DNA of 64,000 bases from Cylindrodendrum hubeiense (taxonomy: Eukaryota > Ascomycota > Sordariomycetes > Hypocreales > Nectriaceae): contig JAANBB010000015.1 of the NCBI GenBank assembly GCA_014621425.1, forward strand, positions 1 through 64,000, given 5' to 3'. Numbering within the stretch: position 1 is the first letter of the stretch; every line of letters begins with the position of its first letter. The translations under genes and the position numbers were made by a program. Of this stretch, positions 7,031-64,000 are shown piece by piece. A model generated the notes under the pieces. The model made no database searches, was not told the origin of the DNA, and worked only from the letters and a program-made list of their open reading frames with translations.

Positions 7031-7095
7031 GAGAGCTGAGGGGAGCTGAGAGCTGAGAGCTGAGAGCTGAGAGCCGAGAGCTGAGAGCTGAGAGC
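7028..7095. repeat. GAGAGCT/GAGAGCC heptamer microsatellite
   Basis: Directly after the glycerol kinase stop codon, a 7-base unit (AGCTGAG and one-base variants with CCGAG) is repeated about nine times. It falls in the expected 3' UTR. Confidence 0.85.
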
Positions 7096-7946
7096 CCTGC
7101 GGCATTTACCACGTGCTGTCCTTGTCTGTTTCCAATATCCCGCGTCGTCTGACTGTCGATTTCTTCTGGGTGGAGTTTTGTCAACTTGGGGTAGTGAATT
7201 TTTTTATTGTACCATTCCGAAAGAATAAAGATGCTTCCGTAACTTCCGCGGCGCGCGCTCTAGTGATTCTGCAGTGACAGGCCGACCCGAGGCTCCGGCG
7301 CATTCCAGGACAAGGGTCTGATCCGTCTTATTACGTATATCCACCGTAATCCACGCCACTCTGCTGACGGACCCGGCCGAACCCTGCCACTGGGCGTTGG
7401 CGAGGCATAGGGGGCTTATGCCGAGTGTTTCCAGTGGCAAGTCTGCCGCAATTGCTTGCTAGTGGGGATGGCGAGGGGAAGAAGAGGGGATGGCGAGGGG
7501 AGTGAGGGGATGGCGGGTGGAGAATCGAGATGTCGTCTGCCACCTGCCCTTCAGGAGTCGCATTTCCGTGCTTGACCCCTGGCACACCGTCAGCTCACCC
7601 AACCATAACGCCCGCAGCAGAGGGTGACATCGGGATGCGGCGTAGCGGAGACCCACGTTTTCTTCTCCAAAGAGCCCCAGGGGGCCCCAGGGGGAAGGGG
7701 CTTGAGGGGGAGGCAGAAGGGGAAAACTGGAAAACTGGAAACGTGCCGGTCGAGCGGGCACGCCGAGCGCACTCCGAGCGCTGCCGACCTGTTGTTTCTT
7801 GCCAGGCCATAGAGGGCGAGATGCTATCTTCCCCAGAGTTACCCCACACGCCTGTCAACACGGGGTGAGATCTTCTCCCCAGACTGCTGGACTGGTTTCG
7901 TGGCCCGTCTCTCCCAGAGGAAAATCGGTCCGACCCCATATCACAC
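7096..7946. other. Intergenic region with G-rich direct repeats
   Basis: No gene is supported here. Around 7460-7520 a GGGGATGGCGAGG-like unit recurs three times, and G/C runs occur at 7678-7705. The several open frames are low-complexity Pro/Ser/Gly/Arg translations typical of GC-skewed noncoding DNA. The right end is presumed promoter of the next gene. Confidence 0.6.
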
Positions 7947-10497
7947 ATGAATAGCACGACCATCTGCCCATCGACGAGGGGTGAAATGTGGAGGTCGCGA
8001 GACCATGAAGCGGGAATGGCACCAGCAAACGCACACTCGGTACTGATGCCCGAGGACGAAGCGAACTCGGCCTTTAGTCAGGACGAAGCCTCCAGCGGTG
8101 AGGATGGCGGCGTGGCAGACTCGGCCACCGCCCCGAGGAAGCGAAGGAGAGAAACACACCAAAAGACGTCGTGAGAACCCCAGTCACGCGATGCGTATAA
8201 TACGTGCCCTTTACTGACAGGCTTCGAAGCTGCGAGCTGTGCAAGGCGAGGAAGGTTAAATGCGACCGCGCCGAGCCCGCCTGCTCCTGGTGCGCCCGCC
8301 ACAACCGGACATGCGTCTATCTCGAGAGGCAGAAGCTGGGGACTCGCGTTGGATTCAATCTCGAGCTCGAGGCCAAGGTCAACCGGATTGACGCCCTCCT
8401 GCATGCCCTGGGGCGCCGTGTAGAGGTCCACATTGCCAATGAGCATGAGGCGGCTGCCCAGCAACTATCACCGTCCATCAGCAACAATAGCCCCTCGCAG
8501 ATTGACAACTATCAACAGAATGAAAGTCAACTTAGCCAGCCCAGTCTTCTGAGAGCCACACAGACCTCTCAGGCCAGATCGCAAGGATATCCAAGCCCTA
8601 GCTGGCGGATGGACAATGGCCAGGAAAGGCTTCCACTGCGGGACCAGGCCTCCACTCGAACCCAGATGAACCTCATGGCCAACAGCCCTTCCACTCTGAA
8701 CACCACAAGCTCTGACAGGGGCGCACCGCAGATGAATCTCGTGGCCAACAGCCCTTCCACTCTGACCAACACGAGCTCTAATAGGGGCGCACCGCAAAGC
8801 TCACCGTCTTTACGATCCCATAACCCGGATCTCCCGCCTCACTACGTACTATACACCCTCGTCGACCTGTACTTCAAACACTGCAACACCTGGTCCCCCA
8901 TTCTTGATCGGAAGACGACGTTTGAAACCATCTTTGGACCAGCAACACTGGGGGAGTCGGACCAAATCCTGCTCTGTGCCATCGTAGCAACAACATTAAG
9001 ATTCTACAAAGACCCACGGCTCACGCCCGAAATGAAGGCTCACTACCACAAAGTGTCTCGTCACAGAGTCCAAATCTACGCCATGGAACACATCAGCATT
9101 CCCGCACTTAGAGCTCTGGTGATAGTCTGCCTGGACGAGCTGGGCACTTCCAATGGCCCCCGCGGATGGAACCTCCTATCACTCCTGGTGCAGAACGTGA
9201 GACAGCTCGACCTCTGCAAAGAGGCCAGTGTGTACTTGAAGGCTGACTCCCACGGAACACCACACACGGGCTCGCTCCGCAGAGTAGCGGTCGGCGAACC
9301 CGGGTCATGGATCGAAGACGAGGGTCGTCGGCGTCTGTGCTGGGTCGTCTATCTACTGGATCGATACGCGACGGTCGCTACAACCACCTTTGACTTTATG
9401 CTCGAAGACTCAAAGATGAAGAGGATTCTTCCTTGCTCGTATGACCTGTTTTCCAGGAACTTGCCCGTCGAAACGCAGTCGGCGAGCTCATACACGGGGC
9501 AACATGATCCTACTACGTACCTCACAACCACGCCTGAAAACCTAGGAAGCTTCTCGTACCACTGCGCGATCCTGCGAATTCTCAGCAAAGTCCACGACTT
9601 CCTCAAGACTCCGATCGATATCACATCATCCGCAGATATGGCCAACTGGCGAAATACATATCGGTCACTCGACGACTCCCTCAATGCCTGGCTGCAAAAC
9701 TTACCCAGCGAATACAGCAAAATCTCAGCCCTCTGCCATTCAGATCCAGCGAGTCGCGTTGCGAATTGGTTCATGCTGCACAGCGCCTACGTCACTTCGG
9801 TTGTCCGGTTACATTCGTCGGCTGCGTATCCCGCTGTTCGCTCTCATATCCTCGTTCCGTCCCATTACGCAATGCAAAAGTGTTTGTCGGCCGTACAGAG
9901 TCTTGGCGACATTGCCCAGGATGTTCTCGAAGCAAATGGATTGGACCTTCTCGGTCCACCGTTTGCTTTCGCTCTGTGGGTCGCTGCTAGACTACTCTTA
10001 GTCCATGCAGCGACAGTTGGATCCCTGGTCGACCCGAGAATCGTCTTCTTCATCGACACTCTTCGTCATGTCGGCCAGCATTGGGAGGTGGCGAATAATT
10101 ATGCCAAGATTCTGGAACGGGTAGTTCACAGAGAGCGGCAATGTGATATGAGTTTTGCGGCCATGCGAAGGTGAGTTTGCCCAAACTTGCATCATGCGTT
10201 ATATTAACATCCCATAGAAGTGCGTACGATCTGGTGACACTTACATCTGCAACTCGACAGTCTGGTGTTCAGCAAACATCCACGCAAGTCACATCCCTCA
10301 GCGAACTAGACAACATTGATGTCTTCGACTTCTTCAATTGTCCCAAGGTTTTAGAATCAGTATCCATAGCGTCAGGGGGCCATATTAATATTCTACCGAC
10401 TCGAAGTATGAACGAACTCGGCGGAGATGTTCCAAGACCAAACACTGTTCCGAACCTCGAGTCAGACTGGCTGGGATTTACCTCGTCTTTTAATTGA
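7947..10497 (+). CDS. Zn(II)2Cys6 transcription factor (TF1)
   Basis: Fungal binuclear zinc cluster regulator. Three exons (7947-8170, 8221-10170, 10218-10497) give up to 817 aa. The first exon ends with a basic stretch (RKRRRETHQKTS) that runs across the intron into the zinc cluster: Cys residues in CELCKARKVKCDRAEPACSWC followed by the sixth in NRTC, spacing C-x2-C-x6-C-x6-C-x2-C-x6-C. A short heptad-like linker (LELEAKVNRIDALLHAL) may dimerise. Residues of the middle region match the fungal_trans domain (regions around YTLVDLYFKHCNTWSPILDR and EDEGRRRLCWVVYLLDRY). A 22-residue segment is duplicated in tandem in the linker. The start is uncertain; in-frame Met codons at 7986 and 8016 are alternatives. 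No target can be named, although the gene is convergent with the glucan lyase. Confidence 0.87.
8663..8797 (+). repeat. Tandem duplication inside TF1
   Basis: A 66-base unit starting CAGATGAACCTC is followed immediately by a 69-base copy, with about 85-90 percent identity by eye. It encodes two copies of a Q-M-N-L-x-A-N-S-P-S-T-L-x-T segment. The reading frame is kept. Confidence 0.85.
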
Positions 10498-47474: not shown

Positions 47475-50400
47475 TCATCGTCTTTCAAATTGGAGCTGGT
47501 AAGCATGCCATGCCTTTCTAATATCCTGCACCCTGCTCCCTTGTAGACCTGTTTCCTTCTGTGCGAATGATACATCTGGCATATTCGAGGGCTCTGGACA
47601 TTCTACGTTTGAATCCTCACTATTAAACACCTTGTCACCATATCTAGCCTCCTCGACGAATGGAATCTTGTTTTTACCCTTCTCGCCCACATTAACTGAG
47701 TTGAACTTGACAATATCAATAACCGGGAGATTGTCTGAGGATCGGGGCTTCGGCGATACGGCGATATTCAAACCCATAATGTGTTGCAACATTGGCTCAG
47801 TCGCATTGGCAGCTGATGCTGGAGATTTGTCGTATCGTCCCCATAGCGCAGGTGCTAAGTTTTTGACACTTAGTTGCTGACTCTGCAAAGGAACTGAGTC
47901 ATTGGGGCCTGGGCCCTTCAGCGCAACTATGAGTTGTGACTCCTCAATGGGCTTCTCAAGTTGCATTGGGCGCGCAAACAGTGCTGGTGATTCGTATGCA
48001 TTCGGTGCGGTTTGGCCACCAATTGTAGCTTTCAGAATCGGTACACGCACCTGGACCTCAAACTCTAGGTGGGTGCTACGAATCTCAACCAAGGCCGAAT
48101 CGTTGCTCTGGTTTACTGATTGATGGTTCTTTTCCACAGGAACAGTGCCCTTCATAATAGTGACGATGTGATTGGGTGTTCCCTCCTCATCTGATCTATC
48201 CGGAGATTCGGCTGGCAGGTTTTTAACCATGCGCACAAACGATTCCCAGGACAGCGGTGATGGCGGCGATGCGGCTGGACCAAAGACAACGATGGTGTCC
48301 CACCGCCAGAAATACAGATGAGCATAGCCTACCAAGGGCGGCCCGTAGAGCCCGAGCCGAGCAGAGAATTCATACGGGCCAAGGTGAATATTCCATAATG
48401 CTGCCTTCAAGTTGAGCTCGGCCGAAAACGTAACACCGACGTCAATATTGAAGCTGAAAGGGTGAAAGTGCATAAAAAAGTCGACCCAGGCACTAAAGAA
48501 GACACGGATCCACCCCTTGTCGACAAACAAGTCAAGACGCCCACCGCCCATAGCGATCTGCGGTGTGACGGCAAAATACGCGGTGCCCAAAATGCGAGTT
48601 TGCGAGTCGTATTGCCAGCTGATGGCAACACGCGGCGGGGCGACAGGATAGTGCGATGGTGGAGAGTACCGTGGATTGTAGCCGCCGACAGTAAAAGCAA
48701 AGTCACCCTCGTGCGGGGAGCCCGGAAGGAACAGTTGAAAGGCGAAACCACCTGTTAGGCGGCATGAGGGATTCAGGATGAAAGAGCGAGGGGTCAGTTG
48801 GCCACTGGCAAAGATTGTCCCATGGAGTGGATCGATTTCTGCGTAGATGACAATGTCGAGAAACAGAAACGCTTTCGCAAGGGTGTCGTTAGACTGGGCT
48901 GACTTGGGGAAGACAGCAGTGGCCTGGGCTATGACGGCAAACTTGGGCTGCTCTGCGAGGGTCATGGCAATGAGAACAACTGCGTCAACTGTCTGGAAGG
49001 CTTTGAGACCAACGCCAGCCACCAACCACATCTCGTCGCGAGTCATGGTGATCCACGTTCGACTGCCACCGTTGCCACCTTTCAACGTGGAGAGCGTATT
49101 TGTCAGAGACTCTGGAGGTGCCGTCTTGTTGTTCATCGCAATGAACGGAAACTCAGCAACCTGCGAGACGGCAGGCAACGTCAGTCTAGAGTTGTATCCG
49201 AACCCACCAGTGAGACCATTCACTTCGACGCTGCCAATCGAGAAGATTGGCCCTCGGACTACGCCCAGCACAAACATGGACTTGGTTCGGTCAGGAGACT
49301 TGCTTTCCGAATACATGCCGCTTGCCTTGGCTGTCCAAGTCTTGAAGGAAACAGAAATTGCCCCCATAAACCCAGCTTCGTCCGAGTTGTCAAACTTCAG
49401 AATCAACCCCGCCAGTCGCGTTGGGGGCTTTTCGAAAGATACAGCCATACCTTTGACGTCAACATCGAATGATAAGTTGCTGAGGCCCTCTAGGCTAGTA
49501 ATTTTGGCTAGATCGACAGTGAATGTGAAACCCATGAGTGCGAGCCCGAGGGGACCAAGCTGAATCGTGGCGTCGAGAGAAATGCATATGGTGCTTAATG
49601 ACGACCCAGATACGGAGAGTCCGACATTTGTGATGGCAAGATTTCCGACTGTTTTTGTCATGGGTGCGACTGTCTTTCCAGATTTTCCAGGTTCAGGTGG
49701 CACGGGCTTATCTTCATCACCTTCTTGTGGACTTGAGGGAACATCACTTATCGCTTCCTTCTTCGGTTTCTTCTTCTTCTTAGCAATATGGTCCAACACA
49801 AGCTTGGACTTGCCGGCCTCAAACATGGACACCTGAAAGTGAAACCCTTCGAGGAGAGGTTCCAAGTTCGTCTCGTTGATATGACTGAGCAAGGGTAATT
49901 TGTCAAGAACATGTTTGTTTATGACTTCAATTTCGGACCCTGTTACATCCCGGTTTGTCCACACAATTCCCAGCTGATCAAACGGCTGCTTGACGGCGCC
50001 AACCGCAGGTATGGGTGGCAGGTCTGGCAACTTGGTGAATGAAACACGCAGGAGCCGAGCTGGGCCGGTGTCGCTGGAGGCATCCGCAACGTTGCCATGT
50101 AATCCAGCTAATGATTTGGCTTTGGCGGCTGCAATGGAGCGAAGTTGGACTAGGGTGATGTTGAGGTCGCCGACCTGGATATTGAACGAAAACACCACAT
50201 ACTTATTACCCTCTTTGTCTGCCGCCTTTATACAGGTGAGCTTTGCGCTGAGCTTGTTCCGAGGAACTTCGAGATTTCGCACAAGTTCAGGCAATTCAGA
50301 CTCATTTTCCACAAGGTCTCGCAAAAGCTCCACAACGCGGAATGTCCCATCCGTCGTGGCAGGATGCAACTCGGCCGTGAAGGACCACGTCTCGCCTGTG

Positions 50401-53400
50401 TGCGAGTAGTGAAGATCAAGTTCCACTTTGCTTTCGGATTTTAAGGAACCAAACCGAAGCTTCCCGTCTACGAAAAGTGACGTGACCCCATCTGACCGGT
50501 ACTGATGCTGAATTTCTGCGCTGACGATGTGGATTCCGGCCATGAGATCCAAAATCGCATGACTAGAACCATCCCGGGCGAACAGGTCACATAAGTTGGC
50601 CACCTTGAGGTTCTCTATGCCTGCAGAAGCTTTCCAGACAGAACTCTGGTTACTGTCTCGCTTGTATGCGACTTTGAAGTTGATCACTACACTATCTTCC
50701 ATAGACTCGGAAATGTTGCTGTCGTCGAAACTGGGGGGAAGAGTGAGGACAAGCGATGCATAAAGAGTTATGTCGGCTATTGTGTTCTTGGGTAAAAAGC
50801 CCAGTGCAAGAGACAGTGAAGCTGTTTGCAAGCGTAGTAGTGGGGCGTGTGCGTCATCAGTCGCGGCATCTGAGGTTGATTTGCACTCGATAGTGGCGGA
50901 AAATGCGGCCAATGTGTGATTGGAACTCCTCCCAATGGTGAACCAGGCATCTGAAACTGTGTCTGGGAGGAATGGGGGTATTTTGACACCAACCGGTAGG
51001 TGCAGCAGACTTGCAAGTGGAATCTCGTAAACCTCCTTGCCTGTTCCAGGGGCCGTGAGGACATTGTCTTCATGAAATGGGTGCAAAGACTGCGATTGGA
51101 GATTTCCATAGTAGCCAGGGCGCCACAGTTCCGCCGACAATGAGATTTCGTTATTTTCCCAGTGTAAGGTCGCCAGAAACGGTATTTGCTTGTCTTCCCC
51201 TCGAACGGTGACTGGCCTGGTGATTTCGAGAGCAATCTCAAAGGAACAAGGTATCATGTCATGATCCAAGCAAATGGCCACGTGATTTACAGAAATCTCC
51301 GTCCTACCATTGACATCCCGCAGTTGTTCTTCAATTTCTCGGGCCTTCGATTGGTCATCTTGAACCTTGACGCTCCCCGGGGTCTTGGGCATGAGATTCT
51401 GGGCCCATTTTAACAACCCAGATAGTAGGTCTGGACTGTTGGAGTATTTCAGAATGATTTCCAGCCCTTGGTTCGTGAAATTAATCGCGACAACTCCATC
51501 AAATAGAGGCGTGTCTTTGTCTTTGTCAGTCCAGGTAATCGTTCCCTGCAGACCCAGTTTCATGAATGACCTGCTGTGCTTGGGGCCCAGCGTTTCTGTA
51601 ACCTGTGTCCCAATAAACACCACGTTTGTGATGGTTAGAGAACCCAGAGCCTTCTTCAATTTGTCCTCCAGTGACTGAAACCCCCCATCTAACCCCATCG
51701 CCAGGCGGACAACAGTGCGATAGTTGAAGTGCGGCATGAACCACAGCCCGGAGCGACTATTCTCTAGGGGCTTCAAGGTGATGGAACTGAGCAAGCCCGT
51801 CATCACCCCATTTTGAGGATGGGGAAAGCCGATGAGTGCAGAAAACTGCTCAAGATCGATTCTGGTGATGGTCTCAGATTTCACATCGAGTGCAAACAAG
51901 ATGCCCTGCATGTTTTCATCGTAACCCAAGGCAGTCTGCTGCTTGCCAGCTTCTTCGCCAAATTGTTGCTCCCGAATGCTCTTATCTGTTGTGAAGAGCA
52001 TTAACGGATGTTTCTTAATATTATTTCCACCGAGATACGGCAGATGGTGTAAATCGGGGGCGCTGTCGTCAAGCGTGCCAAGACGAATTTCCGCTCGACT
52101 CAGCGAGATTTCCTGCGCTCTCCCCATAGCCCCGACAAGACGAAGTGACGCGGCAGAATTGAGACAATGGTCAAACCATTGACTGCATGGGGATTCGATT
52201 TCGGACAACATTTCGTCAAAGTTGATGCTTAGGTCGGGCTTTGAAGACAACAGGCCACGGGTTAGAGTGGATGCGATTTGCTCCTCGATAGAAGAACCAG
52301 CAGGGGGGCGGGGTGAAAATAGATTGCGATGATGTGAACTCCCTCTTGTAGACTGGTTGGGTTGTCTTGAACTTCGGTGGTTGAATAGTCGGTTTGTTAC
52401 TCGCGTCATCAAATCCGCCCTATCTTTGTCTTCGTCTGTCGTCGCAAGGCTCTCCCAGTTTCTTTGATAAAAATGAACAGGATCCGAGTCGGACTCAATC
52501 GCCATGCCATCGTCATGTTTATTTTGTGTCGAAACAGCACTTTGAGATTCTGAGAGCTTGTGTGAAATGTTTTCGCTATCCCCGCTAGCAGTCATCTCGA
52601 TGTACTGCATTTCCACACCCTTTCCCAGTGCGGGTTCGCAGAAGTCCCCCCAATGTTGTTCCATGGCCTTTTGTACCTCTGAGATGAGGATGTGCAAAAG
52701 TGCGTCTTTCAATTTGGTCTTAGTGTATCCCTTCGTGTTGCGCACGATTATTGGGACTACCTTGGTCATAGGATGTGTAGCGTGCAATTGTTTCCAATCT
52801 TCAATCTTTGTGGGGGAATAGTGAAGATTGAGAAAGGCACTAGCATATCTCACCGCTACCTTGTAAAAGTCTCCTAGGTAGGTTTTCAGAAATGGGCCAT
52901 TTGGGAATTCCGGGCTTGTGTCAATTTTCTCAAACAGCGTTTGGATCGCTAATGCGGTAACTCCCCAGCTCATGACTGTGAATGGGTTGAAGTGTACACC
53001 ACCGAGCGTCTCTGGTTCGTTGACTAGCCAATATGGTTCATTTAAACAAGCCATTTTTGGGGTATAGAAGAAGGCGCTGTTTCCCTGTAGCAACTTGGCT
53101 ATAGCTAGAAAGCAATACACGACGGCAAAGCCTGTAACTGATCAGTGTCTTGGGCTTGGATAAATGGATCGCCGATAGCTGGCATATACGCGAAACTTAC
53201 TTGGGTGTCCGTAATGATACCCGGCCGAGACGACATACAGCTGGAGTCTGTGCAAGAACAAACCCTCAGGTGTTGAGAAATGTGATCCATGGTGACTGGC
53301 CTTGATGGCGCTTATGCTCACTTCGTTTCCTTGGCCCTCAATCCAATTCAACATTGTCTCTTCTGAGGCCTGCGGAACATCTCCGCCCGTAAAGAGCGAG

Positions 53401-54173
53401 ATGCGTATGTGCGGATTGCCTGTGACCCGGGGCCACATGACCAGTGCCATGATGGACGACTCATTTTTGAATAGGCCGGTCTTTCGACTGACGAGACTGG
53501 GACTGAGCCAATCAGAGGTGCTGTAGCTTCTATCTTCGATCCCATAGACGAGGAAGATTGGTTTGTGCCCTTCCTGTAAGGTTTTGGACTGGGAGTAGAC
53601 ATCCAGCAGCGTACAGGGCCGTGTCCACGGGGGTTGACTCCTGTCATTTGTACCTGTTTCAATATGAGTTCCAGCGAAGAGATCGTAGCCAATGCAGTGT
53701 GTACTGGTCCTGGCCTTGCAGACATGTAGCCATTGTCCTGTTGGGGAAAGGAACTGAAGACTGTCATATAGGTTGCCAGGATTGAATACCAGTTTGTAGT
53801 TTGTGTTGGCTAGTTCGACATCGACGGCTCGTAGTGGGCAATAGAAGACGGTATTTTGATTCATGTAGGAGGAGGAGGTGCAATCTTTGGATATCCAATC
53901 GCTGTACAACATAGCGAGAAGACCTGCATAATGATCGTCATCCCAGTGTGTCACGACGACAGCAGTAAAGAGGAGGCCTGAGGGTATGGTTGTCGAGCGG
54001 ATTCGCTTGATGGCATTTTCGACTTTGAGCTGCGCTTCGAACTTGCCGCCATCGATCAATACAGCCGATTCTATGGCTTCAGTGCCATTGCTTCCAGGGT
54101 TATTGACCAAGAGGTGCACGGCCGCATCGCCCGTTCCTACATTGATAAAGTAGGATTTGACGAAGTAGGTCAT
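47475..54173 (-). CDS. MBL-fold (ComEC-like) / DUF6603-like giant fusion protein
   Basis: A 2209-aa protein in two exons (54173-53201, 53131-47475); an acceptor at 53138 is also in frame. Residues 1-325 form a metallo-beta-lactamase-fold domain of the ComEC/Rec2 extracellular type: INVGTGDAA, DGG (41-43), THWDDDH (75-81, H-x-D-x-D-H), TGGD (262-265), KASHHGS (291-297) and GHPS at the splice junction. These predict a metal-dependent hydrolase or nuclease. About 1100 residues of beta-rich sequence without recognised domains follow, then a Lys-rich linker near 1440 (KKKKKPKKEA). Residues about 1490-1950 look like DUF6603 (GGYNPRYSPPSHYPVAPPRVAISW, AYFAVTPQIAMGGGRLDLF, WVDFFMHFHPFSF). The rest is polar. 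No signal peptide or membrane helix was noticed. It lies downstream of the 1381-aa gene on the same strand. Role unknown. Confidence 0.82.
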
Positions 54174-54734
54174 GACGGCGGCGATGGACAGTTTGACAGA
54201 ACCAAGTCAACAAAAGATATCCAGGAATCAGAAAGCTCAGTCGTCAGTATGATGCTGCTAGGTGAAAGCATTCAACCTGATGGGTGGGCAGTTGGCGAGT
54301 GCTGGGGACTGTGTTCAAGCAGCCTGAGAGGGTCGTGTAGACTGCCCACGGCAAAGACATCCCGAGTCACCGCTGCCAAGGCCCTTTTAGCTGGGTACAT
54401 AGAACGCCACGCTGCGAGAAGCAAAAGGAACTATTGATGACTAGCGTGAAAAGACGCACTGTGCGGGCCGTGGCGGGGTTGGCGGTAAGCCCATTTCGGA
54501 CTTGGCTGTAAGGATAGTTGACACCATGTCAATATGTCAAGATGTTGTTGGCGCGGGCCCAACAACACAATATCCATCGCTTTGAATTGATGGGGCAGCA
54601 AGGCTACAAGTGACTGACCGAGTGTACTGTGAATTGGATGACTATTGTGCACTCTAGGCCGTACCGTAGCCAAATCCGGCTTCATGATATCATTTGAATG
54701 TAAATGTTCCTACTCGATGACTGAATACAACTAC
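54174..54734. other. Gap between the two minus-strand giant genes
   Basis: 560 bases with no coding sequence. It holds 3' UTR of the 1381-aa gene and promoter of the MBL/DUF6603 gene. The two genes are therefore separate transcription units or loosely spaced neighbours. Confidence 0.5.
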
Positions 54735-57700
54735 TCACTCTTTCGATGCCATGGCTCCCTTTACTAGTACGTAGCCCTCTACCAGCTCGCTCCCAACAGA
54801 CGCGTCGATATTCATCCTCACGTCCAACGGTCTAATAGCAACGTCACTCCACGTCGTTTTCTCTCCTGTCTGCTTCCCGTTTTCGCCACGCACAGTTTCC
54901 AGTCGTGGCTGCAACCAACGCCAGGCATTTATCCCTTCTCCTCCCCCGAGCGGCATCTGGATCCCGAGTTCTGGATTCTTCCCATCAGGGTCCATGGGCA
55001 AGGCCTGGAAATCCGGCAGCGCATGCATTGCTGGAACAAGCATGGGGCCTGAGGCAAAGAAGGCCCGCATGCTTCGTAGCGCCGTGTCCATCGGCCAACG
55101 CGGTAGAGACAGCTCGGCAACTGGAAACAACGAACCGGAGTAGGCGTGAATTGGCATCTTGGGATCCATGATGACGCTGATTGGAGCTAGACGCTCTCGA
55201 TGTCTAGTGGCAATGTCGCTAAGCGTTCCGGAGAGGAAATACGGCTTGACTCGTAGCGGCTGTGGGTGTTCGTCGGCAGGCCTGAAGATGGTCGCAGTAC
55301 CGGAGCTAGTGCTGTTTAGTTGCACGGCGTCACGGTCAAACGCCGTCGCGACCTTGTCTATCTCGCCATATGCAGCAAAGGTACCGACGAGACCGTCAAA
55401 CGCCGCTGTGTGGTTTCCTAGAGCAACGGAAAACTCGTAGTCGAGGAGCTTGAGTTCCTGAGATTGGGAGGATAACAACGATGCATCAGTCAGCGGCGGT
55501 GCACTCAGCTCGATTGACACGCCCACATCCGCAACACAAAATGGGCGTCCCAGTGCGGCAGGTAGAGCAGTGTCAAAGTCAGCACCCGATGAAAGCATGC
55601 TGTCGCTCGCCCCGGCAAGCATGTTGAATAACCGCAATGAAAAGTCGTACTGCCGCATTGCTTTGAGCAGCGACGGCAGTCTACCGGTGGCTGGGGGGAG
55701 CGCCATGACGTTCCGCGGTCCATCCGACACCTTGACGCTCGTTGTTGAGTCAACAAGGACAATTTCGACAACGAAGTCTCCACTGGCGTCATACACTTGA
55801 ATCCCATGGCTCTGGAAGTTGGGTAACAGCCACGCCCAGACGGGGGGGTCCCATTCCCCAGCAACCTTTCTCGTGATAGGCTTGTCCGCAGCTGCTTTGG
55901 CCACGTCCGCATCGGACAGAGGCATGAGAAAGTGAGCATTGAGTCGTGCCCGTTGGTTGATTCGTGGTGGAATCTGGAAGAACTGACACAGGCCGTGACC
56001 ATTCTTGTCATCCTCGGCCTGGACGGCCGTGTTTGGCCAATACTTGTCCTCAGGCTCTCCCTTGCATGTGGGTATAACACCACAAGCCAAGCTGGGCGAG
56101 ATGCTCGGATACATGGCACCGTCTCCAGTGGGACCTAGCTGGAGTCCAGATACAACTTGACCAAACTTGTCGACAATGGCAAACTTTATAAAGCGTGCCT
56201 GGCCGTGTGTGACAGGTTTGAAGGGGCTAAAGGCGGAAGTGTGCGATAGCGGTAGCGGCGTGGTATATCCATATGGCGCAAGCTCCTGCGCTGATGACGG
56301 GCTATTCACGAGGAGCTCCATGGTTTCTTTTTCAATCCAGAGTATTTTTCGAATAGCCTCGTCGGCTTTGGGCCGTGGATGGTGTCCTTGGCACAGCGTG
56401 GTGAGATGACTGGAGAGGCCGGCAAGGGGCGCGGAAAAGAACTCGAATCCCGCAACCTTCTCCAGCAGCTCCTCTCGCTTTTGCTCGCCATTTTCATTCT
56501 TGGCCGGCGATTTGGCAAATAACTGCTCGAGGCGAGCACGTAACGTCTTACCCGGCTCTGGAAGGAACACGGTGCGGCCCTTGAGGACGCGCATATCTTG
56601 ACCGACGCTCTGGTCCTCTAGCAACGACTGCTCTCCCTCGTCTCCGGATGGAATAACATAACGCCAGCGACCTGTTTTCATGTCGGCCTCGAAACTCCAC
56701 TTCGCGAATGGCACGTGGTAATACTCGAGCTCCCACTCCAAGAAGAGCGGGAACCAGCCCTGAGTGTTGTCCATGTCCTCCATGGCGATGTATGGGTTTT
56801 GCTGGACAGAGAGTGAGGGCAATTCGAACTCTCGCAGAAGCGTAGCAACTGGCTCCGAAATATCTGGAAGTATGTCGTTCAGCCACGTCTCAATAGCTGT
56901 TGCTTCGGAGGGCTTTGGCGAAATGTCGGCAGCGAGTCGCACCGGCAGCACACCGTTGAAGTCACTCGGCCATCCAGACTTGGCGCCCGCCACCAAGATG
57001 GTGGGATCTTGATGTAGGCCGTAAGGGGCCGTGGGTATCGCTTCCAGCTTCTTCCCCCCACCGATAAGCACCTCGATCTCCGTTTTGAGCTTATCAACCG
57101 TTGTCTTGGTGGATTCGATAATCGTACTAAGATTCTGCAGTCGGCTTTGAATCTGCTTGGCTTCTGCTTTGATCCTTTGCTTCATAAAGTCTTGACTTTT
57201 TAATGGTAGACTTCCAAGACCGCTTGCATTCCACCAGCACCCAAAGAGCCGTTGCATGAGCTGTGCGGACTCACGAGCGCATGTATCTAGCATGAGCTGG
57301 CCTTCATTGAGCGGCGTCAGCATTTCAATATGCTCTTCTTGGGCGCGTTTCTTTGCTCCTCGTTCCCCAGCCGTAGCTTTCTCCGGCTCAGGGCCCTTCC
57401 TTTCTGACCCTGTCGGGTCGAACATATGGGGACTATCTTCTGTCTCGTTCTTGGGGAGACGCCATGCTGTGCCTTCGGATCGTTCCAGAAACGACTGTGA
57501 GGCAGCATCTTCGGCTGCACGTCGGAGGGAATCAGCATCGTCGCCTTGCGCTAGAACTCGCGGGATAAGCTGCGCCAAAACTGACTGCGCATTCGCAGAG
57601 TTGGTATCCATCGGGTCAAGGGCAATGTGGATATATGCAGCGAGAGCATCTAGCATATGGGTGCCAATGGCAATAGGAGTCTCTGCGTACATGTCTTGTT

Positions 57701-58880
57701 GGAGTGACGCCGCTGGCCAGCGCATACTGCCCGTACCCGCCCGGTTCCACCGTACGTTGCGGATCGCTCCGTGAGTGGGGGTGCGGTTAGCTGGACTGGC
57801 GAGGGCTTGCAAGAAGTCGGCGCGCATTGGCGATTGATTATCCATGGTGAGATGCAGCGCGTCAAGGAGCTCCTTGTTACTCATAAAACCCGTCTCGTCG
57901 GACTCACCACTCTCGACAGGGAGAAGCTTTTCACCGTCGACAAAGGTCAGCGGGTCGGAATCATTAGCTGAAGAGTGGTAGCCAACCACCAAGTAGTTGA
58001 CGGACTCATTTTCAATGCCGGCGAGGTCGTCAAAGTACGAGAACGATCCCATATTGTGTGGCGCGTAGTCGGCGAAGAACTCGTGCCCCATCTCAAACGC
58101 GTTGAACGGCTCGCGATACTTGCGGGTTTGGGCATCCTCCAAGTTCTTTTTTGTCAGCAGACTGGAACGCCCCATTCGCAAAGTCCACTGCTCATCAAGA
58201 GGTTTCTCTGGATCCATTGCCGGACAAGTCTCGGCTTCAACGTCGTCAGGCATTTCGGCATCGTCAATTGTGCGAATACAGTTACTCTCGACCAAGACGT
58301 ACTTCGCCAGCTCAGGCTTACTGCGTACCTGGCGGACGACGATCCATCTATCGGGTGCCGATCGGAACTGCAGGCTGTTCTCGTCCGAGGTTTGTGTGCC
58401 CGATGTTTCCACCGGCTTAGTTTCACACTTGAAGCCTGCCCTGGCCTTGCGTGACTCCCACTGCTTCTTGCCCTCGCCTTGGACGTCTCCCACATCAACG
58501 AGGGCGCTGTCGGTCGCAGTAATGGCGCCGCGGTAAACGCGCGGTAAGCACCAGCTCAGATACACTCCTGTACGGCCCGATCGCAGATTTCCAGTGCTGA
58601 GATCAACAAAGCGGGTGCTGTGTCTGGCCTGCATGCGCCAATACGACAGGTCAAGGCTGTCCATGAGGTCGTGGACAGGTGCACCAAGGCCACGGGGCTG
58701 TAGTAGTGTTGCATAGTCGGGTTCGATGAGAGGCGCAAACTGCGCAGCGGTCTGAGTGACTTCATTTGTGATAACAAGGGCCTGTACGGCCATGGGAACG
58801 ATGACGGTAAATCGCTCTTGGGCGCTTGGGGCGCGAGGTTTGGAAGCCATCGCTGCTGACTCGAAGGATTGAGCTTTCAA
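54735..58880 (-). CDS. Giant uncharacterised intronless protein (1381 aa)
   Basis: One uninterrupted frame encodes 1381 aa, exceptional among the multi-exon genes around it. No domain can be named with certainty. Visible features: an N-terminal region with RFTVIVPMAVQALVITNEVTQ and WRMQARHSTRF; an acidic/charged stretch around 480-520; a predicted coiled coil at about 567-612 (AKQIQSRLQNLSTIIESTKT); a central Trp/Pro-rich part (WFPLFLEWELEYYHVPFAKW); FIKFAIVDKFGQVVSGLQLGP; VWAWLLPNFQSHGIQVYDASG; and near 1110 LGRPFCVADVGVSIEL, then FSVALGNHTAAFDGLVGTFA. From memory, the last two blocks recall large uncharacterised bacterial proteins (LGRPLA...FPVRLG...DGLVGY). No signal peptide, membrane helix or catalytic motif is evident. 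An alternative start is the Met at 58850. Confidence 0.8.
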   Translation of the reverse strand: MKAQSFESAAMASKPRAPSAQERFTVIVPMAVQALVITNEVTQTAAQFAPLIEPDYATLLQPRGLGAPVHDLMDSLDLSYWRMQARHSTRFVDLSTGNLRSGRTGVYLSWCLPRVYRGAITATDSALVDVGDVQGEGKKQWESRKARAGFKCETKPVETSGTQTSDENSLQFRSAPDRWIVVRQVRSKPELAKYVLVESNCIRTIDDAEMPDDVEAETCPAMDPEKPLDEQWTLRMGRSSLLTKKNLEDAQTRKYREPFNAFEMGHEFFADYAPHNMGSFSYFDDLAGIENESVNYLVVGYHSSANDSDPLTFVDGEKLLPVESGESDETGFMSNKELLDALHLTMDNQSPMRADFLQALASPANRTPTHGAIRNVRWNRAGTGSMRWPAASLQQDMYAETPIAIGTHMLDALAAYIHIALDPMDTNSANAQSVLAQLIPRVLAQGDDADSLRRAAEDAASQSFLERSEGTAWRLPKNETEDSPHMFDPTGSERKGPEPEKATAGERGAKKRAQEEHIEMLTPLNEGQLMLDTCARESAQLMQRLFGCWWNASGLGSLPLKSQDFMKQRIKAEAKQIQSRLQNLSTIIESTKTTVDKLKTEIEVLIGGGKKLEAIPTAPYGLHQDPTILVAGAKSGWPSDFNGVLPVRLAADISPKPSEATAIETWLNDILPDISEPVATLLREFELPSLSVQQNPYIAMEDMDNTQGWFPLFLEWELEYYHVPFAKWSFEADMKTGRWRYVIPSGDEGEQSLLEDQSVGQDMRVLKGRTVFLPEPGKTLRARLEQLFAKSPAKNENGEQKREELLEKVAGFEFFSAPLAGLSSHLTTLCQGHHPRPKADEAIRKILWIEKETMELLVNSPSSAQELAPYGYTTPLPLSHTSAFSPFKPVTHGQARFIKFAIVDKFGQVVSGLQLGPTGDGAMYPSISPSLACGVIPTCKGEPEDKYWPNTAVQAEDDKNGHGLCQFFQIPPRINQRARLNAHFLMPLSDADVAKAAADKPITRKVAGEWDPPVWAWLLPNFQSHGIQVYDASGDFVVEIVLVDSTTSVKVSDGPRNVMALPPATGRLPSLLKAMRQYDFSLRLFNMLAGASDSMLSSGADFDTALPAALGRPFCVADVGVSIELSAPPLTDASLLSSQSQELKLLDYEFSVALGNHTAAFDGLVGTFAAYGEIDKVATAFDRDAVQLNSTSSGTATIFRPADEHPQPLRVKPYFLSGTLSDIATRHRERLAPISVIMDPKMPIHAYSGSLFPVAELSLPRWPMDTALRSMRAFFASGPMLVPAMHALPDFQALPMDPDGKNPELGIQMPLGGGEGINAWRWLQPRLETVRGENGKQTGEKTTWSDVAIRPLDVRMNIDASVGSELVEGYVLVKGAMASKE

Positions 58881-59676
58881 GTTCTCAACCTGCTTGGAGT
58901 CCGATGAGGGTAACTGAATAATCTCTTGCTCCTCCGGTTACTTGGATACGAGATGCTATTTGGTTACGCTGCGGGAGCTGAAGGTTGGCACGCAGTAGAG
59001 CGCCATGGAGACAGTGGCCGTACACTGTGTACTTGGTGAAACTAGTAGAAACATGCAGCCGATAGTTCGGCGCAGACGCATCGTCGAGCATGTTCATTGC
59101 TGACTACAGCAAAAGGGGAGTCGAGACTCCGCTAGTGCGTTGTGCAATTGGCCTATACTGGTTCTGACAACGCGTCTAGTGCTTCCAGAGGAGGCGGGAG
59201 ACGGGCCGGGCGAGACTATTTGTTCGACCTGCCTCAAAGACACGTGTATGCGCCAACCACTGTTGTCCCACTATGCCATATCTCCTTGACTGTTGACTGT
59301 TTTACTACTGGTAGGGTCGGTATGATGCCTCGGCTAAAAAGAAACTACCCTGTAACAGCTTAGTGTCTGTCAACCTAGACAAGTCCTTAATGTGCGTGCT
59401 CCACCAGCAGTAGAACAGTCAACGAGGTTAGCAAAAGTGCCAATGGTTCAAGGGCTAAGGATTCGTAAGCTGCACTCTCAAGCCTCCACGATTCCCATGT
59501 GCACATTAGCCTTGTAGTCGGTAAGCCATTTCATCCGGTTGGCATGGCGTAGCAAATTCATCTCTCACTCGCCCTTTTTCCGTTGTGTCATATCCCACAT
59601 CTCGGCCTGCTCTGCCTTTATCCTCTATACCAGGCACCATTCCGATCAAGCGTATTGCTGCGAGGAATTGGCAACA
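58881..59676. promoter_or_regulatory. Divergent promoter between giant genes
   Basis: 796 bases separate the start codons of the 1381-aa gene (minus) and the right-hand giant gene (plus). No coding sequence or clear operator is visible. Shared control of the two is inferred from geometry. Confidence 0.45.
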
Positions 59677-62600
59677 ATGCAGTCTCATTCTCGCAACCAT
59701 TTCCACCCCGCGCTCAGCAACCGCGTGCCTGATCGGGCCCTTACCAGTTCCATCGCGGCAGACCAGCAGTTGTCTCCCGATCAGGTTCGGCTCTGGTCCT
59801 TCCAGGAGCCTCCCCTCGCTCCTGGCGATTATTCTCTTTCTGTATCACAGCAGATTCAGTTGCCTGCACCTGGCGACAACGAAGATAAAAGACCACCGCT
59901 CAAAAGCTTGTCTATTCCTAATACGCAGCTTCATGTTTCTGGTCCAAAATTCAAGTTCAGCGATCTGGCCGACCTGCACAGCGTCTACCCAGCGGCTGGT
60001 CACAGCGCTTTTGCGCGCACGTTGGCTCATGCTGTCTTCAACCACCCTACCACGCCATGGGAGCAGCACGCTAAAGATGGCAACCAATTTGGCTTTAATA
60101 AGCTACCATGGGTGGGTGTTCTTTCATTTACTGAAGAGGAGCTGGTCTCAGACCCAGCAGTGTATCGAGGTCTTGGCTTCAAGGATGATGAGGTGTCGGC
60201 CGAATATGGCTCTGTGTCGCTAAAGGCGGTGAGACTGGCCGAGCTACAGAGCGTCGTCAAATCGGCTCCGACTGCGCCTGGTGCAGGGACAAACTTCAAA
60301 CCAAACGACGATGTGTCCATGGTACTTCTAAAGCCGAAACTATTCAAGGAAATCTTCACATCATATGATGCCAACAACAACCGTGTTTGGAGTGGCAATG
60401 CAGATCTGTCTAGGTTCGCAATGATGGCTCACGTTGAAGAATCTCATGGCGGTTTCACGGCAAGATCTCATGTCGATGATGTTCCGACTGAACAGCCACA
60501 GCATTCTATTGTTGTGAGTCCACGGACAGGGAGGCCGGGCATAGTATCGCCAACACGAGTTATTTCTCACATCTTTTCGCTTGAGGACGTTGAGAAGATA
60601 GTCTTGACAAATAATGATAGCACCACTCAGTACGTTGGTTTAGTGTCTCTTCATTCTTGGGACTGGATGAGCGTCCCAGAGGGCGCTGTCGACTTTCAAC
60701 ACGTTATGGCCAATCTCGGCAAAACCGTCCAACCGCTTCGAATCAAATATGAAAAGGAGGAACAGGAGCAATCCCTTGCAAACCAGCCCGCCCAAGAGGC
60801 GGATCGATCGCCATCGCAAGAAGCAATCGGTTGGCTCAAGGCAAAGTTCGACGCTGGCTACGTCTTCAAGCCACAAACGGCCATATCTGGAGTGAAAACT
60901 GAGTCCCTTATTCGGGGGCCACTAATTCCAGTCAAGCCAGAACGTAAAACGACAATGTCATCTTCTCTCTCCGGTGAGGGTCTCGCCTTGGCCGATGACG
61001 AAACAGGCATTTCAAATGTCTCACACCAGTCCGCTTGGACACTCGGCCGTTCCATGGTCATGGCTGACCGTACACTCACTGCCGCTTTGCTGCGGTTGAG
61101 AGGGTGCATCCACGCCGAGGCTGTACGCCGAGCCAAGGGGGAGGCCCTCACGGGAAAAGGCTACGGAATTTTGAGCAGCCATGACACGTATCTTTCACAC
61201 CTGGAAGATGCAATGGAGCAACTGAAACATGCACAAAGCGTGACGGGCCTGAATAGCAGAGATAATGCTACAGCACGTTGGGCACGCACCGAAGATGAGC
61301 GCGCCGATCTTCCTGTCATGCGACTGTCTATTGATACATCATTTACTTTGACAGAGTATATCGATCATGTCGATGCGGTCACATTGGACATGTTTGGCTT
61401 CAAGGCTCAAGATTCGCCCGACCAGCCTCCGGCAGCAAGTACAATTGACTCTGACGCAGCTGCCATTCGTGCGTGGGTCGTTGATCGGTTCATGCTTGCC
61501 GGAGTTCCACTACACTATCTGGTCCTTCATCCAAACATGCTGCCGCAAGAGTCGATCCGAACCTTTTGTGTTGATCAGGACTGGATAAATCGACTTGTGG
61601 ATGGCGGGTTAAGTCTTGCCAATCACTTTGCTCGCGACGACGATGCAATTCGTCGTGCCATCAAAACCTGCATCCAAAAGTATCTAGAGACACCCATTGG
61701 AAACAACCCCCAGTCAACAACACCACAGCTGCCGCGTTGGGGGTTCTTCTTACGGAGTATGGCTGTCAGTGCCTTTCCAGACCTAAAGGTTGAGGCGCCG
61801 CTCCCCTCCGATGCCCCTGCGAACGCTCGTGAAGTCGTGTTCATGCAAGTCCTAGCCGATGACATTCTCATTTGCCTATTCGATCGACTTCCTGGAGAAA
61901 AAGAGCTTGAGCGCATCCGTATTTCTCAACCTCACCACCAACAAGGATTTGCGCTTGGCACGCGCCTACTTGCAGCTGAACTTGATGGAATGCACCGTGG
62001 CGTGCCTATTCATCCCACACAAGATAACATTACGGTTGCAGAACTTCACTCAGACTCCACGTCTCTCATTCAGGTGTACGATTTTGACACACGGATGTTG
62101 CGGCCGGACATGTACATGGGCAAGTACTTCAAGGCCATGGAGGGCAAGGCCGACGTCTTCCAGTGGCCAGTTGAGGACAGAGTTAACCCACAGGCTTCTC
62201 TTCTGGCCACCCAGCTCAAAACTGCCAATCTACGGCTTACTTTGAGCATGGGCGAGAAGGATTCGTTCACGGAAGATCCGCCCAAAGAGGGTACCTCTCC
62301 GGGTCGATGGAAAGGTGCAGCCGCTGAGCTATCCATTTCACCGCGACCGGACCTTAATAAGGGAAAGGCAATCAAAGATATACCGGATCCGACACTTGCT
62401 ACACGGGCACCACCAGCCAAGGTGGCTCTCCCAAATGGTCCTCGACGTCGCGTATCCACGTCTGGCTCAACCAGCGCCAGTTTTCCAGATGTATCCTCGG
62501 AGCAACATGACATCGACGAGCTCAATAATACATCTAATATAGCTCGTGTGCCCCACCTTTCTCTTGAAAAGCTGGTGTTCAAAAAGTTGAGATGTAAGCC

Positions 62601-64000
62601 TTTGCCAGCCGAGGCGACCTGTTTTCTATGCTATGAGCCAGGAAGCAGTACCAACACAATCTATGCCACGGAGATGCCGACTGACCTCGTCTTCAAATTG
62701 AGTGGAAATGAATACCCTGGTCCTCTAAATCAGTTGGAAATCCGCATTCCCGTTGCAGTTACGTCTGGTAATTCCCCTCCCCGGATTATCGGCCGCCCCC
62801 ACGGTCTCCTCATGATTCCTGGGACTTCTACTAAGCCGCTGTTGCCTGTCCTTGAGCCTCTCGACTCCAGACACCGGTGGTCATATAAGTGCAGGCTGGC
62901 CCAGGGGCATTTGTACGCTCTCACGTCAGAGGACTCGCTCACTTTCGGCTCCAATGTGTCTGCTCAAGATTTGTGGTGCGTCATGCTGGTTATTACAATT
63001 ACGCCGCGGCCCATCAGCCCTCTACCTACCAAGATGAGGATGTACAACGCGTCGTTTATCCTACGAGGCGTCACATTTGTTCGTCCCGAACAAGATACTT
63101 CCGCCGAACCACGGGATGTCCCATCAAGAACTACGCATTTTGATGCCTTGCATTGGGATTCATCTCGCACAGATGACGAGGTTATGAGTGTGCGATCGAC
63201 GAAAATCACAGTGCGCCCAGCTACCACTGTCTCTATACTGGCAGACGAGACCGAATATGACCTCGACACTAGGAAACTCAGCATTACCTACGAGCTATCC
63301 CATCTTCCTCCTGTCACATCGAACATCAGGCTTACTGGTATGGTGGGCATGTATAATGGTGACGAATCTGCCGTACGCGTCGTGAAGTCGGTTCCTCTTC
63401 CAACTGATCCATTGGAAAATTCTGCTCAAGGAAGGTACCGTTTCCAAAGCACCTACGATATGGAACTAGGCGAAGTACCACTTGAAATACGCCTGGCCGC
63501 TGTGTCAAACAACAGCGAAGCCATTGGCCCAGACTCGGCGCCGTTTGTATTCCCGCGCTTGCCGTCGAGAGTAGAGCGACAAAGTCACCGCTTTTGTTGG
63601 AAAGATGGCTACTTCAACATTTATTGGACTCGGCCAAAGGCAATGCAAATGCCCTACACACGAACGTACGACTTTTCGGACTCAGTTCACCCACCACACT
63701 CTGTCGAAGAGAATGCCGACGCTGGCGTTCTCACAATCGAAAAGAATGTTCTAGTCAGCCGCATGAGTAAAGAGAACATTGTCAGCTTTGATCTGGTCAT
63801 AAAAGTTGGTAAGGCTTCACCAATAAAGGGCACTATATCTACCTCCCGGCAAAAGATCTCCCTATGGCCGAACCCGAAAGGGTTGCCTTTATCGATACAG
63901 CCTAGTAAAATCGCGGCACCACCACTGGATACAAGTGGAGTCGGCGTCATGCGCCTTTGGAAAGGGCAAGATTGGATTGAGACTGAGGCTTTGTACTGGA
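59677..64000 (+). CDS. Giant uncharacterised protein, 3' end outside window
   Basis: A frame open from the ATG at 59677 to the window edge (1441 codons, no stop, no intron). I checked it line by line. The N-terminus is hydrophilic (MQSHSRNHFHPAL). Notable blocks: FSDLADLHSVYPAAGHSAFARTLAHAVF (about 95-120); HVEESHGGFTARSHVDD near 255; HSWDWMSVPEGAVDF near 330; AWTLGRSMVMADRTLTAALLR near 455; WVVDRFMLAGVPLHYLVLHP and QESIRTFCVDQDWINRLVDG near 605-645; and an extended beta-rich C-terminal half. From memory, the last pair resembles large bacterial proteins with P-E-S-L-R-F-F-x-x-D-P-N-W-x-D-A-L-V-D-G. No membrane helix or catalytic triad is recognised. It is divergent from the 1381-aa gene and clearly part of the same locus. 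Frames called elsewhere in this interval are shadows. Confidence 0.8.
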   Translation, partial: MQSHSRNHFHPALSNRVPDRALTSSIAADQQLSPDQVRLWSFQEPPLAPGDYSLSVSQQIQLPAPGDNEDKRPPLKSLSIPNTQLHVSGPKFKFSDLADLHSVYPAAGHSAFARTLAHAVFNHPTTPWEQHAKDGNQFGFNKLPWVGVLSFTEEELVSDPAVYRGLGFKDDEVSAEYGSVSLKAVRLAELQSVVKSAPTAPGAGTNFKPNDDVSMVLLKPKLFKEIFTSYDANNNRVWSGNADLSRFAMMAHVEESHGGFTARSHVDDVPTEQPQHSIVVSPRTGRPGIVSPTRVISHIFSLEDVEKIVLTNNDSTTQYVGLVSLHSWDWMSVPEGAVDFQHVMANLGKTVQPLRIKYEKEEQEQSLANQPAQEADRSPSQEAIGWLKAKFDAGYVFKPQTAISGVKTESLIRGPLIPVKPERKTTMSSSLSGEGLALADDETGISNVSHQSAWTLGRSMVMADRTLTAALLRLRGCIHAEAVRRAKGEALTGKGYGILSSHDTYLSHLEDAMEQLKHAQSVTGLNSRDNATARWARTEDERADLPVMRLSIDTSFTLTEYIDHVDAVTLDMFGFKAQDSPDQPPAASTIDSDAAAIRAWVVDRFMLAGVPLHYLVLHPNMLPQESIRTFCVDQDWINRLVDGGLSLANHFARDDDAIRRAIKTCIQKYLETPIGNNPQSTTPQLPRWGFFLRSMAVSAFPDLKVEAPLPSDAPANAREVVFMQVLADDILICLFDRLPGEKELERIRISQPHHQQGFALGTRLLAAELDGMHRGVPIHPTQDNITVAELHSDSTSLIQVYDFDTRMLRPDMYMGKYFKAMEGKADVFQWPVEDRVNPQASLLATQLKTANLRLTLSMGEKDSFTEDPPKEGTSPGRWKGAAAELSISPRPDLNKGKAIKDIPDPTLATRAPPAKVALPNGPRRRVSTSGSTSASFPDVSSEQHDIDELNNTSNIARVPHLSLEKLVFKKLRCKPLPAEATCFLCYEPGSSTNTIYATEMPTDLVFKLSGNEYPGPLNQLEIRIPVAVTSGNSPPRIIGRPHGLLMIPGTSTKPLLPVLEPLDSRHRWSYKCRLAQGHLYALTSEDSLTFGSNVSAQDLWCVMLVITITPRPISPLPTKMRMYNASFILRGVTFVRPEQDTSAEPRDVPSRTTHFDALHWDSSRTDDEVMSVRSTKITVRPATTVSILADETEYDLDTRKLSITYELSHLPPVTSNIRLTGMVGMYNGDESAVRVVKSVPLPTDPLENSAQGRYRFQSTYDMELGEVPLEIRLAAVSNNSEAIGPDSAPFVFPRLPSRVERQSHRFCWKDGYFNIYWTRPKAMQMPYTRTYDFSDSVHPPHSVEENADAGVLTIEKNVLVSRMSKENIVSFDLVIKVGKASPIKGTISTSRQKISLWPNPKGLPLSIQPSKIAAPPLDTSGVGVMRLWKGQDWIETEALYW

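What the first reader, a model, noticed from the sequence alone, without database searches (positions are those of the whole stretch)
47475..64000. Locus of three giant, nearly intron-free genes: candidate undescribed multi-gene system of bacterial type
Seen: three adjacent genes encode 2209, 1381 and more than 1441 aa with one intron in about 15 kb of coding sequence, while neighbouring genes of 600-3500 coding bases carry 1-9 introns. Family knowledge, from memory: the DUF6603-like block and the LGRP.../PESLRFF-like blocks recall large uncharacterised bacterial proteins. Inference: a bacterial locus entered this fungal lineage and stayed together, implying that the proteins act jointly. Separate beta-rich, coiled-coil and hydrolase modules would suit a large assembly, but no function can be assigned.
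Basis: partly seen in the sequence, partly recalled or inferred. Interest (0 to 1): 0.9.

Follow-up and report, generated by a model that had tools for sequence, protein, structure and literature searches.

The report
Bacterial three-gene operon in a fungus
Three giant fungal genes turn out to be a bacterial gene module of unknown function, apparently moved into fungi as a unit; in bacteria one slot of the module holds interchangeable enzymes such as nucleases, proteases and lipases, which suggests a tool for attacking or defending against other organisms.

Summary
Gene 1 (2209 aa, one 69-bp intron) is a ComEC/Avs1a-like metallo-beta-lactamase (MBL) fused to a DUF6603 protein. Gene 2 (1371 aa) and gene 3 (1827 aa, intronless, ending outside the window) match no curated family. 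In bacteria the same genes sit together: of 80 DUF6603 loci, 52 have at least 7.5 kb on both sides; 52/52 carry gene 3 and 50/52 gene 2, same strand, a few bases apart. The bacterial gene just upstream of DUF6603 is exchangeable (22 clusters among 70; MBL, DNase-I-like, subtilase, lipase, LanM-like and others), while the three core genes co-vary. A fifth gene often carries lectin- or tail-fibre-like domains. Rows labelled fungal form one clade in all three trees, this genome holds three divergent copies of the set, and other fungi keep the genes together, so the transfer is old. The DUF6603 region is modelled as amphipathic beta sheet recalling ApoB, LptD, FimD and porins. Best reading: an undescribed effector-carrier-binder system that delivers an enzyme; the main rival is intracellular immunity. 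Delivery is inferred, not shown. No paper in the held library mentions DUF6603 or PF20248.

The parts
47475..54173 (-). Gene 1: MBL-DUF6603 fusion protein, 2209 aa, two exons
   Evidence: Pfam DUF6603 3.8e-127
53132..53200 (-). Predicted intron of gene 1 (69 bp, GTAAGT...TTACAG)
   Evidence: sequence; bridges GHPS|FAVV in frame; homologues such as P0027 carry both parts in one protein
53145..54173 (-). N-terminal ComEC/Avs1a-like metallo-beta-lactamase domain of gene 1; in a cluster of 20 of 70 bacterial loci an MBL is a separate gene directly upstream of DUF6603
   Evidence: NCBIfam Avs1a 1e-9; PADLOC LmuA 2.7e-13, RTasMBL 7.7e-9, Avs1a 1e-8
53931..53948 (-). Metal-binding motif HWDDDH of the MBL domain (residues 76-81); SHHGS follows at residue 293
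48132..49658 (-). DUF6603 domain (PF20248)
   Evidence: all-beta model of window 48111-51683
54735..58850 (-). Gene 2: 1371 aa, no curated family; its bacterial homologue is a core gene of the same operon
58851..59676 (.). Divergent intergenic region between genes 2 and 3
   Evidence: sequence
59677..64000 (+). Gene 3: 1827 aa, intronless, continues to contig position 65160
59677..61956 (+). Conserved core of gene 3 (about residues 1-760), shared with bacterial homologues; the C-terminal WIGxDGS repeats (from residue 1493, outside the window) are not in bacterial gene 3

Best explanation
The locus is the fungal form of an undescribed bacterial gene module: enzyme - DUF6603 protein - gene 3 - gene 2 - binder. 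Shown: the three core genes stay together and vary together in bacteria and are together in fungi; the enzyme slot is exchangeable; in the fungus the enzyme (an MBL with the metal-binding motif) is fused to the N-terminus of the DUF6603 protein. Inferred: genes 1-3 form one large assembly in which the DUF6603 protein, an amphipathic beta structure, touches or crosses a membrane, genes 2 and 3 are scaffold, and the binder (LamG, tail-collar, propeller or sialidase-like domains in bacteria; perhaps the repeat-bearing C-terminus of gene 3 in this fungus) attaches to a target, so that the enzyme, here probably a nuclease, is delivered to another cell.
Confidence: 0.5

Rival explanations
1. Intracellular immunity: DUF6603, gene 2 and gene 3 form a sensor platform that switches on an exchangeable effector (nuclease, protease, lipase) when a virus or plasmid invades, as in Avs or Lamassu systems; fungi use it against mycoviruses or mobile DNA.
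For: MBL domain matches LmuA, RTasMBL and Avs1a profiles; exchangeable genes are typical of such systems and an MBL nuclease gene sits upstream of the partner there (PMC12799240, passages read); sparse distribution; presence on plasmids, one beside annotated conflict genes (CATRA, CHAT).
Against: No NTPase, STAND, SMC, helicase or reverse-transcriptase family in genes 1-3 as scanned by Pfam and NCBIfam; no PADLOC match for genes 2, 3 or the DUF6603 part (bacterial g2 and g3 of L029); lectin-, tail-collar- and propeller-type domains in the fifth slot suggest surfaces outside the cell.
Confidence: 0.25
2. A protein compartment or lipid-handling assembly: an ApoB/LptD-like beta sheet binds lipid, genes 2 and 3 form a shell, and the enzyme slot is metabolic cargo.
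For: The top Foldseek and VIA matches of the D model are ApoB100; some enzyme-slot genes look metabolic (SDR in L041, a class-3 lipase in L024).
Against: Most enzyme-slot proteins that Pfam could name belong to nuclease-like or peptidase families; the binder slot looks like adhesins.
Confidence: 0.15
3. The fungal genes are relics or unrelated large proteins that sit together by chance.
For: One decayed DUF6603 copy (C112) and one decayed gene-2 copy (C1) exist in this genome.
Against: Open frames of 1371-2209 aa with full-length relatives at about 40-75% identity in other fungi; three sets with long open frames in one genome; adjacency in fungi and bacteria.
Confidence: 0.03

Closest known systems
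DUF6603 proteins (PF20248)
   Same: Gene 1 carries the domain at 3.8e-127; bacterial members of 1400-1500 aa head the same gene set
   Different: The Pfam entry describes a domain only; fungal gene 1 adds an MBL domain and a middle region that phmmer did not find in the named bacterial proteins
ComEC / Avs1a / HamM-type MBL nucleases
   Same: HxDxDH and SHHGS motifs, profile matches; exchangeable and typically encoded upstream of the partner gene (PMC12799240, passages)
   Different: Fused to DUF6603 in fungi; no trypsin-like protease partner seen in genes 1-3; activity not tested
Tc toxin complexes, including the reported Metarhizium fungal Tc (PMC13236867, abstract and passages)
   Same: Multi-protein bacterial-type system in a hypocrealean fungus; large subunits
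   Different: No Tc, RHS or TcA-type Pfam domain in genes 1-3 as scanned; there two subunit genes are neighbours and the third lies on another chromosome
Extracellular contractile injection systems and polymorphic toxin systems (PMC8213781, search listing; PMC3482391, abstract start and passages)
   Same: Conserved carrier with exchangeable toxic enzymes and, for injection systems, tail-fibre-like binders
   Different: No sheath, tube or baseplate family in genes 1-3 or the L029 core genes; the enzyme is a separate upstream gene, not a C-terminal tip
[quoted passage not shown] PMC11043215, passages)
   Same: A bacterial multi-gene unit in fungi
   Different: There a known biosynthetic pathway; here large proteins without known function, with domain fusion and several copies

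Membership tests
DUF6603 family (PF20248) | Match above the gathering score | tested here: met
   425 bits versus cut-off 27; three copies without stops in this genome
ComEC/Avs1a-like MBL nuclease | HxDxDH metal-binding motif and SHHGS motif | tested here: met
   Both in the window gene; over 34 fungal rows HxDxDH lies in the MBL region in 29 (4 have none, P0035's match lies elsewhere) and [SA]HHGS in 12
ComEC/Avs1a-like MBL nuclease | Score above the NCBIfam equivalog cut-off | tested here: not met
   37.6 bits versus 420 for Avs1a: a relative, not an Avs1a
ComEC/Avs1a-like MBL nuclease | DNA cleavage | not testable with these tools
   needs biochemistry
Avs / Lamassu / Hachiman defence system | Sensor NTPase, helicase, SMC or RT core | tested here: not met
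   no such family in genes 1-3 as scanned
Avs / Lamassu / Hachiman defence system | MBL nuclease gene directly upstream of the core gene | tested here: met
   an MBL cluster of 20 among 70 bacterial loci with an upstream ORF; Lactamase_B named in 15 of 67
Tc toxin complex | TcA, TcB or TcC domains | tested here: not met
   no such Pfam match at E<=1 in genes 1-3; gene 3 was scanned as its in-window frame of 1487 residues, so its last 386 residues were not
Extracellular contractile injection system | Sheath, tube, baseplate and AAA+ ATPase genes | tested here: inconclusive
   none in genes 1-3 or in the L029 core genes; other flanking genes were not scanned, and one plasmid locus has an annotated baseplate protein about 9 kb away
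Polymorphic toxin system | Constant carrier with exchangeable toxin domains | tested here: met
   22 clusters in one slot, many switches on the D tree; that the enzymes are toxins is inferred
Polymorphic toxin system | Toxin is the C-terminal tip of the carrier polypeptide | tested here: not met
   separate upstream gene in bacteria, N-terminal in fungi
Polymorphic toxin system | Adjacent immunity gene | not tested
   small neighbouring ORFs were not analysed

The most novel reading that the evidence does not exclude
A previously undescribed delivery machine, unrelated in sequence to Tc, contractile or RHS systems, with interchangeable enzyme and binder genes, is spread thinly over bacterial phyla and was taken up whole by ascomycete fungi, which fused the nuclease to the carrier and, in this lineage, gave the gene-3 scaffold a repeat-bearing C-terminus that may bind the target.
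Probability: 0.4. Interest if true: 0.95.

Novelty: categorically new. Interest (0 to 1): 0.86.

Why it matters
Genes 2 and 3 and their bacterial counterparts match no curated family; this puts them in one module with DUF6603 and an exchangeable enzyme slot, and so gives a testable role to a set of large hypothetical proteins in bacteria and fungi. If delivery is right, it is a new class of intercellular weapon and a rare case of a whole bacterial apparatus kept by eukaryotes. If immunity is right, it is a new defence system shared with fungi. Either way the fusion of enzyme to DUF6603 in fungi suggests that the two act together.

Tried and rejected
Recent transfer into this species: rejected; GC3 is ordinary, named relatives lie in Sordariomycetes, Eurotiomycetes, Dothideomycetes and Orbiliomycetes (record names; class assignments recalled), and all rows labelled fungal form one clade.

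Phage origin: one bacterial D protein has no match in phage records, one gene-3 peptide pattern none in IMG/VR. Solved-structure search by sequence: none for the gene-2, gene-3 and D profiles, the MBL piece or the gene-3 C-terminus. Fold search for the gene-3 core: no match. PHROGs: nothing convincing for genes 1-3 and L029. DNA repeats in the gene-3 C-terminus: none at 24 bp. I first thought that the fungal order g2 -> MBL-D copied the order of MBL-type bacteria (g2 first in 14 of 20), but copies C178 and C8 are arranged otherwise, so I do not claim it.

Limits. The 80 bacterial loci are the best of 349 confirmed matches to one query, so they represent one DUF6603 subfamily; the 2000- and 3200-aa proteins were not studied. 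In the D tree I used 82 of 186 extracted rows, with every third bacterial locus, and labelled P rows without names (such as P0036, P0052, P0053, P0055, P0057, P0058, P0060, P0061, P0066, P0067, P0070, P0072, P0073) as fungal beforehand; in the g2 and g3 trees every row that is not a bacterial locus got that label. Trees are quick LG+G4 trees, unrooted, with 22-25 open forks. Enzyme-slot changes (36 over 20 labels; loci with the short upstream ORFs L055 and L062 left out) were counted without a shuffle control and without allowing for open forks. Upstream and downstream ORFs are mechanical calls; 67 of 70 and 48 of 64 were sent to Pfam, and one search does not say which members match which family. 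I had called the second largest cluster (12 ORFs) DNase-I-like: in a check (the family is common, 10 of 14 control genomes) only frames that fit L016 and L043 by length (470 and 608 aa) matched, weakly (E 2e-4); L029 has no Pfam match and a weak MnuA nuclease match (0.0045); L019 has no solved relative and L048 only DNase gamma at 0.079. The label is therefore unsure. Homologue searches scored only about 8000 candidates each, so absence from a lineage (gene 3 in Trichoderma, for example) is not shown. That the WIGxDGS repeats (at least one in 16 of 18 fungal rows, three or more in 0 of 3812 bacterial ORFs) recall PLL/tectonin-type lectin propellers is from memory; no call confirms a propeller.
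Full report
What is there. Gene 1 reads on the minus strand from 54173 to 47475 with one 69-bp intron and gives 2209 aa. Its first 340 residues are a metallo-beta-lactamase domain whose nearest profiles are LmuA, RTasMBL and Avs1a, far below the Avs1a cut-off, with HWDDDH and SHHGS motifs. The rest holds a DUF6603 domain. Gene 2 (1371 aa) and gene 3 (1827 aa, ending at contig 65160) match no family above its cut-off in Pfam, and none at E<=1 in NCBIfam or PADLOC; the best Pfam match is a coiled-coil stretch of gene 2 at 0.0017, and gene 3 was scanned there as its in-window frame.

Other fungi. Gene 2 has 20 relatives besides itself, gene 3 has 17, and the gene-1 search gave 105 hits that include bacteria. 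Fusarium coicis carries them as consecutive locus tags FCOIX_4733, 4734 and 4735. By equal contig length, genes 1 and 2 share a contig in 8 cases, genes 1 and 3 in 8, genes 2 and 3 in 5, and all three in 5. The window's genome holds two further, divergent sets: C178 (MBL and DUF6603, gene 3, gene 2) and C8 (DUF6603 without MBL, gene 2, gene 3, the last read only in part), plus decayed copies of DUF6603 (C112) and gene 2 (C1) and a lone gene-3-like frame (C135).

Bacteria. A scan of the species-genome collection with bacterial DUF6603 proteins confirmed 349 loci, of which the best 80 were fetched. Profiles made from fungal proteins only find gene 3 and gene 2 next to DUF6603: D, g2 and g3 together in 66 of 80 loci. 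Where at least 7.5 kb is held on both sides (52 loci), gene 3 is present in 52 and gene 2 in 50. All 69 g2 and 88 g3 hits are on the strand of the main D, with median gaps of 12 bp (D-g3) and 3 bp (g3-g2). None of the four profiles hits a reversed ORF (0 of 3812). Four plasmid loci found through gene 3 instead of D (of 8 records hit) show D, g3 and g2 in three and g3 with g2 in the fourth. The gene order is enzyme-D-g3-g2-binder in 37 loci and g2-binder-enzyme-D-g3 in 31; 12 have no g2 in reach.

Two exchangeable slots. The gene directly upstream of D (70 found) falls into 22 sequence clusters: 20 MBL, 12 of which some are weakly DNase-I-like, then 6, 5, 4, 3, four pairs and 12 singletons. Pfam on 67 of them names Lactamase_B 15, Exo_endo_phos 9, DUF4135 3, Lipase_3 2 and single subtilase, trypsin, Gln_deamidase_2 and SDR proteins; many have no match. 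On the D tree MBL versus other needs 15 changes (no shuffle control), while distances in D, g2 and g3 correlate at 0.87 to 0.92 (47 loci, 0 of 1000 permutations as high). The gene after g2 (48 of 64 scanned) shows Laminin_G_3 in 17, phage tail Collar in 6, and propeller, sialidase-like or S74 chaperone domains in a few.

Trees. Rows labelled fungal form one side of a branch with support 100 for D (82 rows), g2 (74 rows) and g3 (94 rows). Copies C8 and C178 group apart from the window's copy in g2 and g3, and lie in the same 19-row set in D. So the three genes have a shared history in fungi: one old entry or split, then divergence as a unit. The trees are unrooted. Bacterium to fungus is preferred because the operon form and the phylum breadth are bacterial.

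Mechanism. A constant core, an exchangeable set of enzymes, adhesin-like binders and sparse distribution (DUF6603 in 1/299, 5/292, 9/296 and 8/301 genomes, centres included, 7 of the last 8 over the cut-off) are marks of conflict systems. I prefer delivery to other cells because of the binder slot and the membrane-type beta sheet, at about 0.5; intracellular immunity is at about 0.25, because relatives of this MBL serve there as activated nucleases (PMC12799240, passages). That fungal gene 1 fuses the enzyme to DUF6603 is direct evidence that these two work together.

Literature. The held library has no paper with 'DUF6603' or 'PF20248'; it lacks many subscription journals and preprints. A Tc complex in Metarhizium is a functional precedent in Hypocreales (PMC13236867, abstract and passages), and the transfer of enterobactin genes to yeasts is a precedent for transfer as a unit (PMC11043215, passages). 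Genes 1-3 as scanned show no Tc domain by Pfam.

Noticed in passing
L002 8449-10000 and L003 1-1728 (contig C57 about 68449-71728): About 3.3 kb beyond the end of gene 3 lies a gene with LysM- and hevein-like parts and a GH18 chitinase (E 1e-33), resembling LysM chitinases of the killer-toxin type (type recalled). Whether it belongs to the locus is unknown.
   Followed up: partly
G000:C178 4297-21415 and G000:C8 90001-104981: Two more, highly divergent sets of the same three genes in one fungal genome; C8 lacks the MBL domain.
   Followed up: partly
G000:C112 194198-195390, G000:C1 385783-387762: Decayed DUF6603 and gene-2 copies with internal stops.
   Followed up: no
G000:C135 206268-208091: A lone gene-3-like open frame (E 3.5e-43); no DUF6603 or gene-2 hit was listed on that contig.
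   Followed up: no
L007-L086: Operon order goes with enzyme type: MBL loci mostly have g2 first (14 of 20), the 12-member cluster mostly g2 last (10 of 12). Unexplained.
   Followed up: no
L113 1-1358, 9281-17400: On a Paenibacillus polymyxa plasmid a short D-g3-g2 form lies about 9 kb from an annotated phage baseplate assembly protein V and about 8 kb from a GH-E nuclease.
   Followed up: no
L115 1-4034: On a Streptomyces plasmid the module lies near annotated CATRA and CHAT conflict genes.
   Followed up: no
P0146: A Cosmosporella record of 3118 aa matches both gene 3 and gene 2: a fusion or a merged gene model.
   Followed up: no
P0103-P0130: DUF6603 also occurs in proteins of 2000-3280 aa, including a record from an archaeon (P0127); their neighbourhoods were not read.
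   Followed up: no
window 1-10000: GC is 0.50-0.59 here against 0.45-0.55 in the rest of the window.
   Followed up: no
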